A stretch of 64,000 bases of DNA, from positions 310,001 to 374,000 of the forward strand of contig NC_016483.1 in NCBI RefSeq assembly GCF_000227115.2, written 5' to 3'. Positions 30,829-37,505 of the stretch are shown piece after piece; positions within the stretch are counted from its first letter, which is position 1; each line of letters begins with the position of its first letter. Both the position numbers and the translations under genes were made by a program. The notes beneath the pieces were generated by a model that was not told the DNA's origin, made no database searches, and saw only the letters and a list, made by a program, of their open reading frames with translations. The DNA is from Naumovozyma dairenensis CBS 421 (taxonomy: Eukaryota > Ascomycota > Saccharomycetes > Saccharomycetales > Saccharomycetaceae).

Positions 30829-31152
30829 ATGTCTACTGAATCTGCTTTGTCTTACGCTGCCTTGATTTTGGCTGATGCTGAAGTTGAAATCACTTCTGAA
30901 AAGTTAATCACTTTGACTGAAGCTGCTAACGTTCCAGTTGAAGGTATCTGGGCTGACATTTTTGCCAAGGCTTTGTTGAACCAAAACTTGAAGGAATTGA
31001 TGGTCAGCTTCTCTGCTGGTGCTGCTGCTCCAGCTGGTGCTGCTGGTTCTTCTGCTACTGCCGGTGCCGCTGGTGAAGCTGCTGAAGAAAAGGAAGAAGA
31101 AGAAGCTAAGGAAGAATCCGATGATGACATGGGTTTCGGTTTGTTCGATTAA
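30829..31152 (+). CDS. RPP1A: 60S acidic ribosomal stalk protein P1-alpha
   Basis: A 107-residue ribosomal stalk protein that dimerises with a P2 protein on P0 and recruits translational GTPases. The helical N-terminal domain ([18 protein letters not shown]...) is followed by an Ala/Gly hinge (residues ~65-88), an acidic Glu/Lys run, and the universal C-terminus [11 protein letters not shown]. Codon use is strongly biased toward yeast preferred codons (GCT, GGT, GAA, AAG), as in other ribosomal protein genes. Order THI3-RPP1A-RPL13-RPS16 matches YDL080-YDL083. Confidence 0.97.
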
Positions 31153-31654
31153 GGGAAGAAATTATGATTTCTTAAAGTCAATGATTATATATATCTATCT
31201 TTTTATAACCTTTCTTACATACTATAATACAGCATGACATTTTTTTGTTATTTCACTTAGTTTTTTTAAGTAGTTTTAAATTTATAAACCGATGATGTAC
31301 TTTGAAAATTTAATGGTTATGAAACAATAATGCAGAGCTTTTAGGATTTAACAGAATTCTTCTATAGAGTTAATTAAAACTTCAAAGTAGTAACAGTAAG
31401 ACGGTATTTTTTTGTCATGATCTAAAAATGGTCCCGTATGATAACAATAAGTACGATATATACTCCTGAACTACTGTAAACCTGAAATGGCCAAAATAAG
31501 TGACATAGATTAAAGATATTGCTTCAAATAAACATTTAATAAAGGTTTGGAATTATTATTAGTGATGGCTTCCCATTATAAAATTGTACATAAATTTATT
31601 TCAGAAATAAAAATCGGTAATATATAAATTAATATATAATCGTGCTTAAGGTAT
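31153..31654. other. Intergenic gap between convergent RPP1A and RPL13
   Basis: The 502 bp of 3' flanks are AT-rich, with no ORF or RNA gene recognised. Confidence 0.6.
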
Positions 31655-32658
31655 CTATTTCTTCTTTTCAGCTTCAGCTTCAGCCTTATCCTTGGCTCTC
31701 TTTTCTCTAATACCTCTGTATTTCTTTTCAGATCTGGCTAATCTCAAAGTTCTGAAGGCAGATTCACCGTTATCTTCAACAGCTCTGGTTTCAACATCAG
31801 TAGTTGGTTGAGCAATTGGGAAAGTGGCAGCAGCAGATAAAACTTGTTCAACTTCTGGAGCCTTACCGTTTCTTGGGAAAACAATGATCTTGGATTGGTA
31901 TTCCTTCAATCTTTGAACGTTCAATTCAAAGATTTCTTGGTTAGTGTTTTGACGTCTGTGGTCAACAGCAATACCAATGGTTCTGGCGTAAGCAGCGGTT
32001 AAGCCAGCAGCCTTAACTTCAGCTAAACTGAAACCTCTACCGGCTCTAACCTTTCTGTTGTATCTGACAGTTGGAGCTCTGACAACAGGTCTCAATAAGT
32101 CTAATGGTCTTGGAGCAATCTTGGCAGCCTTGGCAGCTCTAGCATTACGTCTAGAAACTTTCTTACCGGCTTGGTCAAAATGGACCTTGACACGTTCTTG
32201 CCAGTGCTTTCTGAAATGGTTTTTTAAAATTGGTAAATTCTTAGAGATAGCTATTTAAAATAAAATTCATTGTAAATTTTCCAAAGTTTGTTAGTAATCA
32301 TTCTTATTTTTCCATGTAGTATTTTACAGATGTGTTGCCTTCCCTAAGCTGGAATTATTTATCATTATGCGCATGTTTTCAATCGTAAATTCTTTTTTAC
32401 CGTGGGATTTATGTGTTGGTACTCAACGTTGAAAAAACATTCAATAATATTTCGATATTATGGATTCATGGTGCTGTCCATTCTTTGTCCATTTCCTTTT
32501 CATACTTGACAATGTTTATTTTCAAGCTTACAGGTATATTCTCCTGCAGCAATCTCCCTCATTCTATATACCAACTTTTCATTTATTCCTGTTAGAGGTC
32601 ATCATTTGGATTATTAACACATCATTTTCATTATCAGTTGTATTCTTCACATACCCAT
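31655..32658 (-). CDS. RPL13: Ribosomal protein L13 (eL13), spliced
   Basis: A 199-residue 60S subunit protein, the same length as in S. cerevisiae. Exon 2 (32250-31655) alone lacks the start; exon 1 is the four bases ATGG at 32658-32655, joined to CTATCTCTAAG to read [18 protein letters not shown]. The tiny ATGG first exon is also used in S. cerevisiae RPL13A. The core [20 protein letters not shown] and the Lys/Glu/Ala-rich tail ending EAEKKK are diagnostic. The intron is listed separately. It is divergent from RPS16, sharing a 675-bp promoter with Rap1-type sites. Codon bias is high. Confidence 0.97.
32251..32654 (-). other. RPL13 spliceosomal intron
   Basis: A 404-nt intron: 5' splice site GTATGTG at 32654, branch point TTACTAAC with its core at 32296-32290, and 3' splice site TAG ending at 32251, about 40 nt past the branch point. 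All three signals match yeast consensus, and splicing gives an exact-length L13. I see no snoRNA inside it. Confidence 0.95.
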
Positions 32659-33333
32659 TTTTCGTTATTTTTACCTTGCCCTATTAATAAAACTCATTAG
32701 ACACTATTATCTATTATAATAGCCCTTTTCTATATACATTTGCTCAAATTCAATGTTGATCTCTCACTATTGCTTGCTCCGCTACAGCGCACGTAAAGTG
32801 GTACTGGCCCCTCTAAGAAACACAGACTACAACTTCTAAAAGTTCACGCGTTTAGAAAATCAACTACAATTCTGTATTGAATTTTTCTAATTTTCTCAAA
32901 GAAATTCAAAAAAAAAATTTGTTGATCATTATATAACATGTGTGGGTGCTGAAAAAAACACCGTCATATCTTTTAGAAGAAACAAAAATATAAAAGGCTA
33001 AAGTAAGACATAGTAATCCGTACACCCATTACACCCAAACATATTGATCATTCTGAATGTAAAATCATGGAAAAGTTCCACACCTTTATCTAGTAATGGA
33101 CGGGCGGTCAAGGCCAAGGAGAGGTCCTTCTGGAACCTCTGGAATTTCATCATTCTCTGCCTACCTTCGAGAAGGGCCCCTCTCAACCGTAGACAGAGCT
33201 CCGCCTAACTTTCCAACTCTTGATTGTTATACATACTAATAGTATAGGGTAAATATTCAATAAAAATAAGGTTGATTTCAATAAACCATATAACGTCTAA
33301 AAGGACCCAATAGAGCAAGAGAATAAGCATAAA
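32659..33333. promoter_or_regulatory. RPL13-RPS16 bidirectional promoter with tandem Rap1-type sites
   Basis: ACACCCATTACA (33022-33033) overlaps ACACCCAAACAT (33031-33042); both are close to the Rap1 consensus ACACCCRYACAYM, with one or two mismatches. They lie about 290 bp from RPS16 and 365 bp from RPL13, a normal distance for yeast ribosomal protein genes. Poly-A runs near 32908-32920 may add a nucleosome-poor zone. Confidence 0.6.
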
Positions 33334-34244
33334 GATGTCTACCGTCCCAAGTGTCCAAGTATGTCATAATTTGAAGAAAAAAGATATTGATCAATATGAA
33401 CCAATTTTTGATGAAATAGGCAGTAATAATTAATGAGCAAAATGGATAAATTAGAGTCAAACATTTACCAAAATCGGATGTACACAAGAGGAATATACAA
33501 TTTCGTTAATTATAAGTAGAATGATATTTATGAGATAACATTAAATTGCGTACCAGAAGTTAGGCGACTAAGAACATCTACAATCATTGAATATACCGTG
33601 ACAGTATTAAGAAAAAAACGGTGTCCTTGTAAAACAAGATGTCTACGTTAGATCTAAATATATACCAAGTATATCTATTGACGGTGAGAGAAATGGAAAT
33701 TGAAATCAAATAGTTGATCACCTTCATAGACGTTCAATATTGACTGTATCAATGATTTTATATTTTTCGATCGAAAACGTTTGTGCAATTACTAACAATT
33801 AATAAATTATTTTTATTTGATTTTAATTTGATTTAGACTTTTGGTAAGAAGAAGTCTGCTACTGCCGTTGCCCACGTTAAGGCCGGTAAGGGTTTGATCA
33901 AGGTTAACGGTTCCCCAATTACTTTGGTTGAACCAGAAATCTTAAGATTCAAGGTTTACGAACCGCTATTATTAGTTGGTTTGGACAAATTCTCCAACAT
34001 TGACATTAGAGTTAGAGTCACTGGTGGTGGTCACGTCTCTCAAGTTTACGCTATTAGACAAGCCATTGCTAAGGGTTTAGTTTCCTACCATCAAAAGTTC
34101 GTTGACGAACAATCCAAGAATGAATTGAAGAAGGCTTTCACTTCTTACGACAGAACCTTGTTGATTGCTGATGCTAGAAGACCTGAACCAAAGAAATTCG
34201 GTGGTAAGGGTGCTCGTTCTAGATTCCAAAAATCTTACCGTTAA
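33334..34244 (+). CDS. RPS16: Ribosomal protein S16 (uS9), spliced
   Basis: A 143-residue 40S subunit protein, the same length as in S. cerevisiae. Exon 1 (33334-33357) encodes MSTVPSVQ; exon 2 starts at 33837 with [19 protein letters not shown]. The uS9 core ([35 protein letters not shown]) and the conserved C-terminus [11 protein letters not shown], which reaches the decoding site, are complete. The junction phase matches the S. cerevisiae gene. Codon use is strongly biased, in contrast to neighbouring FDO1. The gene is divergent from RPL13. Confidence 0.97.
33358..33836 (+). other. RPS16 spliceosomal intron
   Basis: A 479-nt intron with GTATGTC at the 5' end, TACTAAC at 33790-33796 and TTTAG ending at 33836, 40 nt later. 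It is AT-rich and contains no recognised snoRNA. Confidence 0.95.
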
Positions 34245-35053
34245 GAATATTATATTCCATTATGTGTTTTTTTCCATCATTATATGGCATTCTTTTCTGT
34301 ATTAAACCTTTAATTTACATAATATATTGTATATCTTAATATTATTGGTGAAACGTTTCAAATATTAAAAAAAAATGATGTATACCTCATTTCAATATAG
34401 AATTAGTAGGTAGAACTAGAGTATTATTTTGAATATACTTTTAACATTTACTTCACCGCAATTCATACGATCTACAGTATATGCATGTTAGGTGACTCTC
34501 TTTCCATCTGTGTTAGACTAGGATATGAAGATCGTAAAGTAAAAACCATTTCTGATCTAAGTAAAAACTTCGCTGCAGATATTTTTCAGCATGAATATTT
34601 ACTTTAATAAAGGTCGATACTTTATATAATTGGTTAAGATATGAGCTATATAAGATCTTTTACAACTTAACTAAGAGTGGTTTATGTCGTATACCCAGTC
34701 TACGGAGAAGAACCAAATGAATAACGACATTAACTTACTAAAGGATATTATAACAAGAAAAAGAAGGATATACAGTTAAGAATAACTGGAAGTGGTCTCT
34801 TAATAAGGACACGTTTGCAGGCTTTCAATTGTATCGGTACTTCGACAACTAGGCATGTTTCAGCGGATGAACTGTTGATGTTCCTTATTTGAATCCTCTG
34901 ACGCGACGCGTAAGCGGACTTGTTTAGAATATATTGACTACGAAAACAAGACACGTAAAAATAGACTAGTTTCTAAAACATAACTTATTTTGTGATTCCT
35001 GAAGTTCCTAATTATGACGATTTGGCCATTATCAAACCAAACTAATTATTACA
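34245..35053 (+). other. Intergenic gap before the FDO1-like gene
   Basis: These 809 bp hold the RPS16 3' flank and the promoter of the next gene. I see no RNA gene or repeat. Confidence 0.5.
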
Positions 35054-35776
35054 ATGACAGGCCTTCAAACTAATGAAGCATGTAGTACTGTCGGAACGTT
35101 TACAGAAGTAATAATATCGGGCACAGATGATACCAAACAATTACACGATACGCCAGTAAATGTGAAGGGCAGCATATCCCATCATGCACAAGCAAAACCA
35201 GGTATTGAAAACCAGGTATTATCTGCGGATGAAGCCTCTGCTACTATAGTTCACTTAAATAAGCAATTAGGGAGATTGCAGCAATTGCTCAATCAGAAGA
35301 AGCTAAGGAATATGCTTTTGGAAAATAATGCGAAATCGTTGAAATCAAACAACGAAGTTGAAAGAAAGTTACATAAAGAACAATTCGATCAAATGAAATA
35401 TCAATCTTACCTAGAGAAGGAGAAACTGTTACGAAACTTGAGATTAAAAGATATGAAAATACGAAAATATAAGAAAAGGATCATAAGTAAGAACAAAGAA
35501 ATTAATCGACTAACAAAAATTCTGAACGATAATTCCGTAAAAGATAATTTACGAAACCTGTCGCCGTCTGTTGACCGTAAGGAATCTATATCGTCTAATT
35601 CCGAAATTTATTCAAGTCAATATACAGGCAGTACACCGACGAACAAATTGAGAACGCTTGGTGTCTTAGCCACAAGGGTACTTAATGAGGAATCAGAAGG
35701 ATGTTCAGATGCACATACTATATTAGAAGAATCAGATCCTTCACCAGTTGATCCAAATGCAACAGAACTAGAATAA
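35054..35776 (+). CDS. FDO1: Coiled-coil protein, probable Fdo1
   Basis: A 240-residue protein. Residues ~55-165 form a long, basic coiled coil (SATIVHLNKQLGRLQQLLNQ onward, with many Lys/Arg/Leu heptads). A Ser-rich segment follows, then KLRTLGVLATRVLNEE and an acidic C-terminus. I assign it mainly by position: S. cerevisiae YMR144W/FDO1, a forkhead Fkh1 interactor, follows RPS16A on chromosome XIII, the sister track of this block. The S. cerevisiae protein is longer (342 aa). If correct, this gene belongs to the opposite ohnologous track from its neighbours RPP1A and SUB2. Function stays unproven from sequence. Confidence 0.6.
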   Translation: MTGLQTNEACSTVGTFTEVIISGTDDTKQLHDTPVNVKGSISHHAQAKPGIENQVLSADEASATIVHLNKQLGRLQQLLNQKKLRNMLLENNAKSLKSNNEVERKLHKEQFDQMKYQSYLEKEKLLRNLRLKDMKIRKYKKRIISKNKEINRLTKILNDNSVKDNLRNLSPSVDRKESISSNSEIYSSQYTGSTPTNKLRTLGVLATRVLNEESEGCSDAHTILEESDPSPVDPNATELE

Positions 35777-36152
35777 AAGCATAGTATCATATCTAGAGAA
35801 GCTGTTTGGGTTTCTGAAGTATTAATATTCAATTTGTTAGATTTGGACAGTTTGGCACGATACAACGACTACATGATGAAGCGAGGTTCAAATAAGAATA
35901 ATGCACTTCACTTCATCTTATGTAACTCATGTCTCAAATAAAATAAATAAACAAAAAAATTATTATACCAAAAATATATATATATAGTCATTACATAGAT
36001 GCAGAAGTTTATGCATGAGACCACGAACTAAGATCTTAAAATATTAGGAGAATGCCATTGCATTCGACATTTAAGAATTTTTATTTTTATTTTTGTTTCT
36101 ATCTATTCGCAGTTCCAACATAAACAATACATATAGCATAGATTTCTTCTCA
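35777..36152. other. Intergenic gap between convergent FDO1-like gene and SUB2
   Basis: The 376 bp are AT-rich, with a short TA tract near 35973-35985. No gene was recognised. Confidence 0.6.
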
Positions 36153-37505
36153 TTAATTGTTCAAATAAGTTGATGGATCAATACCTTCTTCTGGGAATTC
36201 AGCAATCTTGACATCGAAACGTTCTTGGATCTTAGCTAGCACTTCTTCTTCTTCCTTTGAAGCAACGAAAGAAATGGCTAAACCTTTAGTACCGAATCTA
36301 CCAGCTCTACCAACACGATGTAGATATTGATCTGGCTCACTAGTTAAATCGTAGTTAATAGCTAAATTAATACGTTCAATATCGATCCCTCTACCGAAAA
36401 CATCAGTAGAAACACAAATACGCTTTTCGAAATCTTTGAAAGCTTTATAACGAGCAATACGTTCTTCTTGTTTCATATGACCGTGTACCGTAATAGCAGG
36501 GAAGTTAGATGCATTTAATAACTTAGTTAATTCATTTGCTCTATTTGTAGATTTAACGAAAATGATAACTTGATTAAATTCTAAATCATCTAATAATTGT
36601 GCTAATTTACGGTTCTTTTCACGTTCTTCCAATTTGATATAGTATTGTTGTAAACCATGTAATGTCAACTTAGCTTCATCATCCACGAAGATTTCTAATG
36701 GATTTTGTAAGAAACGTCTACAGATTGGTCTAATTTCTTGAGATAACGTGGCTGAAAACATCATTACTTGTTTATCTCTTGGAGTAGCTCTAAAGATTTC
36801 TTGAACATCTCTTCTCATATCTAATTCTTCCAGAACTTTATCACATTCGTCAATGACGAAGTTCTTTACGTGTGATAAATCAATATATTTGTCTCTAACT
36901 AAAGCCTTTAAACGACCTGGAGTGGCAACCACAATATGTGGAGCTGTATCTTTATTTTTTAATAGTTCAGCATCTTTATTAATTGGAGTACCACCATAGA
37001 AGACAGCGGTCTTAACATCTGGCATATATTTAGAGAATCTTAGATATTCGTTACGAATTTGGTAAGCCAATTCTCTTGCGTTACAAATGACAACAACAGC
37101 AACTTCACCTGGGACAGGGTCTAATTGTTGTAAAGTAGATAATACGAAGACAGCGGTCTTACCTAAACCAGATTTAGCTTGACATAAGACATCTGTACCG
37201 TGAATAGATTGTGGGATAGTATGTTGTTGAACTTCAGATGGATGTTCGAACCCACAATCGATAATGGCTCTTGATAATTCTGGTTTTAATAAGAAATACT
37301 TTGAATCCAGTGGAATGGATACCAACGTAGGAACCCTTTTATCGGCGCCAGTCGTGGCAGCAGCGTCACCTTCAGTGGTAGCGGAAGCATCGGTGGCACC
37401 GGCAGCACCTTCAGTAGATTCAGTAGCTGCATTGGTAGCATCGACTTGAATTTCTTGTTCGTTATCAGAGTATTCTAATAGATCTTCTTCACCTTCGTGA
37501 GACAT
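36153..37505 (-). CDS. SUB2: DECD-box RNA helicase Sub2, with a locally shifted frame
   Basis: A 450-residue UAP56-type RNA helicase that acts in spliceosome assembly and, in the TREX complex, in mRNA export. I start at ATG 37505 ([20 protein letters not shown]); the frame extends 21 codons further to a TTG with no support. Family motifs are near-identical to S. cerevisiae: [10 protein letters not shown] (Q motif), Walker [10 protein letters not shown] near 109-117, DECD at 219-222, SAT, and [10 protein letters not shown]. Residues 57-70 ([14 protein letters not shown]) are not family-like. The neighbouring frame over the same bases reads [12 protein letters not shown], the exact conserved sequence. 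A missing base near 37337 and an extra base near 37297 would explain it. Everything after [10 protein letters not shown] is normal. See findings. Confidence 0.95.
37296..37337 (-). other. Compensated frameshift segment inside SUB2
   Basis: Codons 57-70 of SUB2 are read one frame off from the ancestral one. The left border is an A-run (GATAAAAGGG) that seems one A short. The right border reads TTCAAAGTATTTC where TTCAAAGATTTC-like sequence would encode the family's FKDF. Confidence 0.85.

What the first reader, a model, noticed from the sequence alone, without database searches (positions are those of the whole stretch)
37296..37337. Two compensating one-base indels rewrite 14 residues before the SUB2 Q motif
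Seen: in-frame codons 57-70 read [14 protein letters not shown]. The adjacent frame over the same bases reads [12 protein letters not shown], which is exactly the peptide at this position in S. cerevisiae Sub2. Both flanks are otherwise family-like. A one-base loss in the A-run at the left border and a one-base gain at the right border explain it. Known: in DEAD-box proteins an aromatic residue 17 positions before the GFxxP of the Q motif stacks on the ATP adenine. Here that Phe becomes Ser68, with Tyr70 nearby. Inference: this is either a real compensated frameshift in an essential helicase, which would be a rare event, or a pair of sequencing errors, or a site of translational frameshifting. 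The exact retention of the old peptide in the other frame means the change is very recent or not real.
Basis: partly seen in the sequence, partly recalled or inferred. Interest (0 to 1): 0.85.

Follow-up and report, generated by a model that had tools for sequence, protein, structure and literature searches.

The report
Assembly scar in yeast SUB2 gene
Fourteen odd residues in a yeast's essential RNA helicase come from two opposite one-base slips that are most likely errors in the published genome sequence rather than real evolution, a caution for anyone comparing such genomes.

Summary
In SUB2 (minus strand, 37505-36153) of Naumovozyma dairenensis CBS 421, residues 57-70 read [14 protein letters not shown]; the frame beginning at 37338 reads [13 protein letters not shown], the S. 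cerevisiae Sub2 peptide. The shifts lie 39 bases apart: a four-A run at 37340-37337 (five expected) and an extra base at 37298. Of 109 relatives scored, 109 fit the shifted frame (6-13 of 14 residues) and none the printed one (0-2 of 14).

I judge it an assembly artefact (0.9). The project used Roche-454 and the pipeline YGAP, which edits scaffolds automatically, taking a read-supported indel near a frame break if the ORF becomes intact. Here one-base changes at 54 or 241 places would pass. So: one 454 error plus one misplaced edit (about 0.55), or two raw errors (about 0.35). A second compensated swap in the same assembly, in a repeat-rich agglutinin-like gene, supports a recurrent cause. No raw reads were available. 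A real change stays possible (0.08).

The parts
36153..37505 (-). SUB2 (UAP56/DDX39B orthologue), DEAD-box RNA helicase, 450 aa
   Evidence: translation; (5suq_A, E 4.8e-268); Pfam DEAD and Helicase_C
37296..37337 (-). 14 codons (residues 57-70) read in a frame foreign to the family
37337..37340 (-). left shift place: run of 4 A where the family peptide DKKG needs 5
37298..37298 (-). right shift place: one extra T (A on the plus strand) at the codon of the near-invariant Asp before Phe71
37227..37253 (-). Q motif GFEHPSEVQ (residues 85-93), intact
   Evidence: coordinates computed from residue numbers

Best explanation
The two indels are not in the organism; they are an artefact of the published assembly. 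Most likely route (about 0.55): the 454 scaffold had one one-base error in SUB2, which broke the frame. The automatic frameshift corrector (YGAP) then took a read-supported indel of opposite sign within its search stretch, because it made the ORF intact, without checking that the residues in between fit the family. That left 14 foreign residues between the true error and the misplaced edit. Second route of the same kind (about 0.35): two raw 454 consensus errors that happen to compensate. Shown: the pair, the family conservation, the tolerance of an 'intact ORF' test. Taken from papers: the project's platform and method. Inferred: that the correction option was used on this species and acted at this gene.
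For: (1) Identity: an ORF of contig C3 is listed as NDAI_0C01930 of N. dairenensis CBS 421 on a contig of 1,536,206 bases, the length of C3. The genome is 13.5 Mb with 11 chromosomes, Gordon et al. 2011, automated prediction (PMC5499181, passages); PMC4533239 (passages) cites the Gordon et al. PNAS 2011 paper for it. (2) YGAP paper (PMC3507789; passages, section 16): a 454 project whose reference is that same PNAS paper; YGAP annotated seven new genomes of it. The corrector searches reads from 50 bp before the end of one HSP to 50 bp after the start of the next and takes the commonest indel that gives an intact ORF. N. castellii: 184 frameshift sites, 109 corrected (81 additions, 28 deletions), 86 of 97 corrected genes confirmed. 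T. blattae: 398 bases inserted (194 A, 184 T), 48 deleted. (3) The two places are 39 bases apart. With only the left shift the ORF stops after 72 codons and a one-base insertion at any of 54 places gives an intact 450-aa ORF; with only the right shift it stops after 90 codons and a deletion at any of 241 places does. (4) Both indels are A/T and 454-like: an A-run under-call, and a base called in one empty flow exactly one flow cycle from a run of three of the same base. In this gene 33 of 1006 empty flows have such a run one cycle before and 29 of 1006 one cycle after (flow order TACG recalled; looked for after the fact). Insertions and deletions are the commonest 454 read errors (PMC3116506, passages). 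(5) 0 of 27 nonsynonymous sites of the old frame have changed against the S. cerevisiae peptide. (6) A second compensated swap in the same assembly, ORF C3:541713-543632.
Against: No reads were seen. The YGAP paper does not name N. dairenensis (0 occurrences) and the PNAS paper is not held, so use of the corrector on this genome is inferred. Conserved domains look clean: 0 of 51 matches in four families (76 kb) hold a stop or have a second piece in another frame. Two independent leftover errors within 39 bases are then unlikely, which favours the edit route over two raw errors but also leaves room for a real event. The second swap spans about 318 bases, lies in a tandem repeat and may have its own cause. 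The codon-usage scan does not flag SUB2 itself. One further scan candidate tested with relatives was in its proper frame.
Confidence: 0.9

Rival explanations
1. A real compensated double frameshift, present in N. [quoted passage not shown]
For: The ORF is intact. The catalytic motifs and the likely adenine contacts Phe86 and Gln93 are intact. AlphaFold2 gives low confidence to this stretch even with the normal peptide, so it may be flexible. In yeast Prp28 single Ala changes of the Q-motif Phe or Gln were tolerated, though the same passage says the equivalent changes in eIF4A and Ded1 were severe or lethal; both concern residues that are intact here (PMC4227776, passages).
Against: Ten of the 14 positions are at least 90% conserved among 35 aligned fungal sequences; the shifted words occur in no other protein retrieved. 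All 13 old residues are kept in the other frame with no nonsynonymous change over the 12 codons counted, an age below about 0.11 neutral substitutions per site if real. Undoing the two events gives back the family residues with no other change.
Confidence: 0.08
2. Programmed ribosomal frameshifting: -1 at the left place and +1 at the right place, giving a near-normal protein from the sequence as printed.
For: The old peptide is fully preserved in the -1 frame.
Against: Needs two opposite, efficient shifts 39 bases apart in an essential gene. Frame 0 is open. No canonical slippery heptamer at the left (T AAA AGG) and no known yeast +1 site at the right (sequence; motifs recalled). Relatives keep the plain frame.
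Confidence: 0.01

Closest known systems
YGAP automatic frameshift correction of 454 yeast assemblies (PMC3507789)
   Same: One-base edits near a frame break, chosen because the ORF becomes intact; inserted bases mostly A or T; same sequencing programme
   Different: The passages and the one section I saw do not discuss compensated leftovers, and the paper does not name N. dairenensis
454 homopolymer errors and carry-forward/incomplete-extension errors (PMC3116506, passages)
   Same: A-run short by one; single-flow extra base one cycle from a run of three
   Different: That paper describes read errors, not consensus errors; here reads were not available
Sub2/UAP56/DDX39B DEAD-box helicases (PDB 5suq, 28xa)
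   Same: Full-length match to Sub2; [15 protein letters not shown] and HRVGRAGR motifs; intact Q motif
   Different: Residues 57-70 as printed, including loss of the aromatic at -17

Membership tests
Sub2/UAP56 DEAD-box helicase | Full-length similarity with DEAD and Helicase_C domains | tested here: met
Sub2/UAP56 DEAD-box helicase | Q motif GFxxPxxxQ | tested here: met
   GFEHPSEVQ, residues 85-93
Sub2/UAP56 DEAD-box helicase | Aromatic residue 17 before the Q motif | tested here: not met
   Ser68 as printed; Phe in 109 of 109 relatives scored. This is the disputed stretch itself; I still call the gene the Sub2 orthologue because the rest matches at 373 of 380
454 error plus YGAP-type edit | Genome made by 454 in that programme | tested here: met
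454 error plus YGAP-type edit | Second indel near the break and restoring an intact ORF | tested here: met
   39 bases apart; 54 and 241 tolerated places
454 error plus YGAP-type edit | Reads contradict at least one of the two indels | not testable with these tools
   no reads held
Programmed ribosomal frameshift | Canonical slippery site at each shift | tested here: not met
   sequence; motifs recalled
Old, fixed compensated frameshift | Same shifted residues in related species | tested here: not met
   representatives of clusters at 90% identity only, and N. castellii Sub2 was not seen by name

The most novel reading that the evidence does not exclude
N. dairenensis really carries a very young compensated double frameshift in essential SUB2, so that a TREX/spliceosome helicase works with a wholly new segment in place of the conserved cap upstream of the Q motif, perhaps with a relaxed mRNA-export function or a compensating change in a partner.
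Probability: 0.08. Interest if true: 0.65.

Novelty: not a real feature. Interest (0 to 1): 0.2.

Why it matters
If it is an artefact, the lesson is general: correctors that judge only by ORF integrity can leave short out-of-frame stretches inside intact genes. Such stretches pass annotation checks and can look like bursts of positive selection or lineage-specific motifs. A second case within the 314 kb examined suggests there may be more in this reference genome and in its sister genomes from the same programme. If real, it would be a striking natural experiment on the Q-motif cap of an essential DEAD-box protein.

Tried and rejected
Codon-usage scan for wrong-frame stretches: no power for SUB2. 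Its 14 codons score 0.5; its best stretch lies elsewhere, scores 3.2 and ranks 72 of 101 ORFs. Over 116 ORFs (101 in the window plus C3:400001-600000, 15 in C7:700001-750000) one ORF stood out (66.6); the best score in any other ORF was 8.7, which I took as noise. Two of those (ERG7-like, TBC-like) I judged in frame by eye, from recall. For NDAI_0C01930 (8.6) I aligned 13 of the 22 other proteins found; the printed frame fits, loosely, in a poorly conserved stretch. The rest were not tested.

AlphaFold2: the window protein is low (pLDDT under 50) over 1-70, but the control P0004 with the normal peptide is as low over 1-67, so this says nothing either way.

Kinase search: 132 pieces, none with a stop; where one kinase was split, the pieces shared one open frame as far as I read by eye. 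DEAD search: 37 pieces; one gene is split between frames (C6:670927-672921) about 1 kb apart, taken as the DBP2 intron (recalled).

In one search my comparison of the other frame was misplaced by one residue; one search replaces it.

Literature: the listings of searches showed me no paper on this stretch or on compensated YGAP edits; one search returned nothing. Passages of PMC10327501, PMC4202332 and PMC10791578 did not bear on it. Gordon et al. PNAS 2011 and the 2018 Yeast paper on misidentified N. dairenensis assemblies are not held.

Rfam and tRNA scans of the window found nothing (tRNA scan with the bacterial code). A repeat search around the site found one 23-base direct repeat (37354-37415) and one 12-base inverted repeat (37204-37262), neither at the shift places.

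Full report
What is there. SUB2 lies on the minus strand at 37505-36153 and encodes 450 residues without a stop. It matches S. cerevisiae Sub2 over its full length (5suq_A). No second close copy was found in the genome (DNA, protein, where the next best match by E-value is 35% identical). Residues 57-70, [14 protein letters not shown], do not resemble the family. The frame that starts at 37338 reads [14 protein letters not shown], against [14 protein letters not shown] in the yeast chain. The shifts sit at the four-A run 37340-37337 and the T at 37298, 39 bases apart.

How strong the contrast is. One search found 7111 proteins and listed the best 120. Of these, 109 had a Q motif that my pattern recognised. 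Against these the printed segment scores 0 (86 proteins), 1 (22) or 2 (1) of 14, and the shifted frame 6-13 of 14. Five of the 11 set aside also show the normal peptide; six were not resolved. Residues 71-450 match P0004 at 373 of 380. In a 35-sequence alignment K57, G58, S59, Y60, G62, H64, T66, G67, F68 and D70 (family residues at those positions) are at least 90% conserved. A search with residues 50-92 alone scored 96 candidates and listed 21 proteins; all 21, read, carry the normal peptide or a close variant of it, and no protein retrieved holds the shifted words. That database shows representatives of clusters at 90% identity, so the deposited N. dairenensis Sub2 itself was not seen.

Organism. 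An ORF of the sampled contig C3 is listed as NDAI_0C01930 of Naumovozyma dairenensis CBS 421 on a contig of 1,536,206 bases, the length of C3. PMC4533239 (passages) cites the Gordon et al. PNAS 2011 paper for the annotated genome.

How it most likely arose. The YGAP paper (PMC3507789; passages, section 16) says the laboratory sequenced several yeasts with Roche-454, citing the same PNAS paper, and that YGAP annotated seven new genomes of it. YGAP's frameshift correction counts indels in reads around the break and takes the commonest one that gives an intact ORF. Nothing in the passages I saw checks the residues between break and edit. In N. castellii 86 of 97 automatically corrected genes were confirmed. 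In T. blattae 398 bases were inserted, 378 of them A or T, and 48 deleted. In SUB2, if only the left shift had existed the ORF would stop after 72 codons, and an insertion at any of 54 places would pass as intact; if only the right shift, it would stop after 90 codons, and a deletion at any of 241 places would pass. The observed pair therefore fits either order: a lost A followed by a misplaced insertion, or an extra T followed by a misplaced A deletion. That the option was run on N. dairenensis, and at this gene, is inference.

Error chemistry. The left change is a homopolymer under-call. The right change fills one empty flow exactly one cycle from a run of three of the same base, on either strand (flow order recalled). 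In this gene 33 of 1006 empty flows have such a run one cycle before and 29 of 1006 one cycle after, so the fit is suggestive, not decisive, and it was looked for after the fact. PMC3116506 (passages) gives insertions and deletions as the commonest 454 read errors and describes carry-forward and incomplete extension.

Is the rest of the assembly clean? Four conserved families gave 51 matches: 12 Hsp70, 10 TCP1, 9 sugar transporters (9 of 41 candidates scored) and 20 amino-acid permeases (20 of 24 scored). They total 76.3 kb by my addition; none holds a stop or has a second piece in another frame. At the published rates, about one flagged site per 46 kb (N. castellii) or one edit per 19 kb (T. 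blattae), taking 1.5 kb per gene, an uncorrected assembly would show 1.7-4.0 breaks; the N. castellii count includes false alarms, so its share is an upper figure. Zero is at best mild evidence that breaks were edited away, which is what would leave compensated pairs behind.

A second case. The codon scan of 116 ORFs found one strong signal: ORF C3:541713-543632 (minus, 639 aa, Candida_ALS_N domain; similar over residues 43-298 to Als9). From about codon 337 to 442 it reads CHHHYHYYWLDW... while the next frame reads TTTTTTTGWTGSFTTTYST..., with the normal frame on both sides. The gene holds 2.9 copies of a 141-base unit. The third unit is one base shorter than the first two at GGTTC. The opposite shift lies near the start of the first unit; its exact place is not fixed, because the sequence before it is not a repeat. 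This is another compensated pair, about 318 bases apart. Being repetitive, it could also be a misassembly or a real change. I only compared frames and units.

Function if real. The catalytic motifs and Phe86 and Gln93 are intact. In Prp28 the Phe inside the Q motif stacks on adenine and the Gln bonds to it (PMC4227776, passages); PMC7912733 (passages) has the -17 aromatic stacking on the Q-motif proline. AlphaFold2 gave no help, because the control was as uncertain as the test.

Verdict. Artefact 0.9 (edit route about 0.55, two raw errors about 0.35), real change about 0.08, recoding about 0.01.

Noticed in passing
C3:541713-543632 (L019:1713-3632, minus): Agglutinin-like (ALS-N) ORF with a second compensated frame swap: about codons 337-442, in its repeat array, are out of frame; repeat unit 3 is one base shorter than units 1 and 2.
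   Followed up: partly
C7:720183-723325 (L027): An ORF ends at 723212 while protein-like reading seems to go on in other frames around a single N at 723325 beside a GCT repeat; it may be a flagged or patched frame break.
   Followed up: partly
C3:588696 and C3:588729 (L023): Two isolated single Ns near long gaps; runs of exactly 20 N occur four times in C3:400001-600000 and once in C7:700001-750000. Some N may be stretches withheld by the operators.
   Followed up: no
C6:670927-672921: DEAD-box gene split between two frames about 1 kb apart, as expected for the DBP2 intron (name recalled).
   Followed up: no
window 30829-37505: Genes for an acidic 60S protein, L13e and an S9/S16 ribosomal protein lie next to SUB2, the gene order recalled for S. 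cerevisiae chromosome IV; supports orthology.
   Followed up: no
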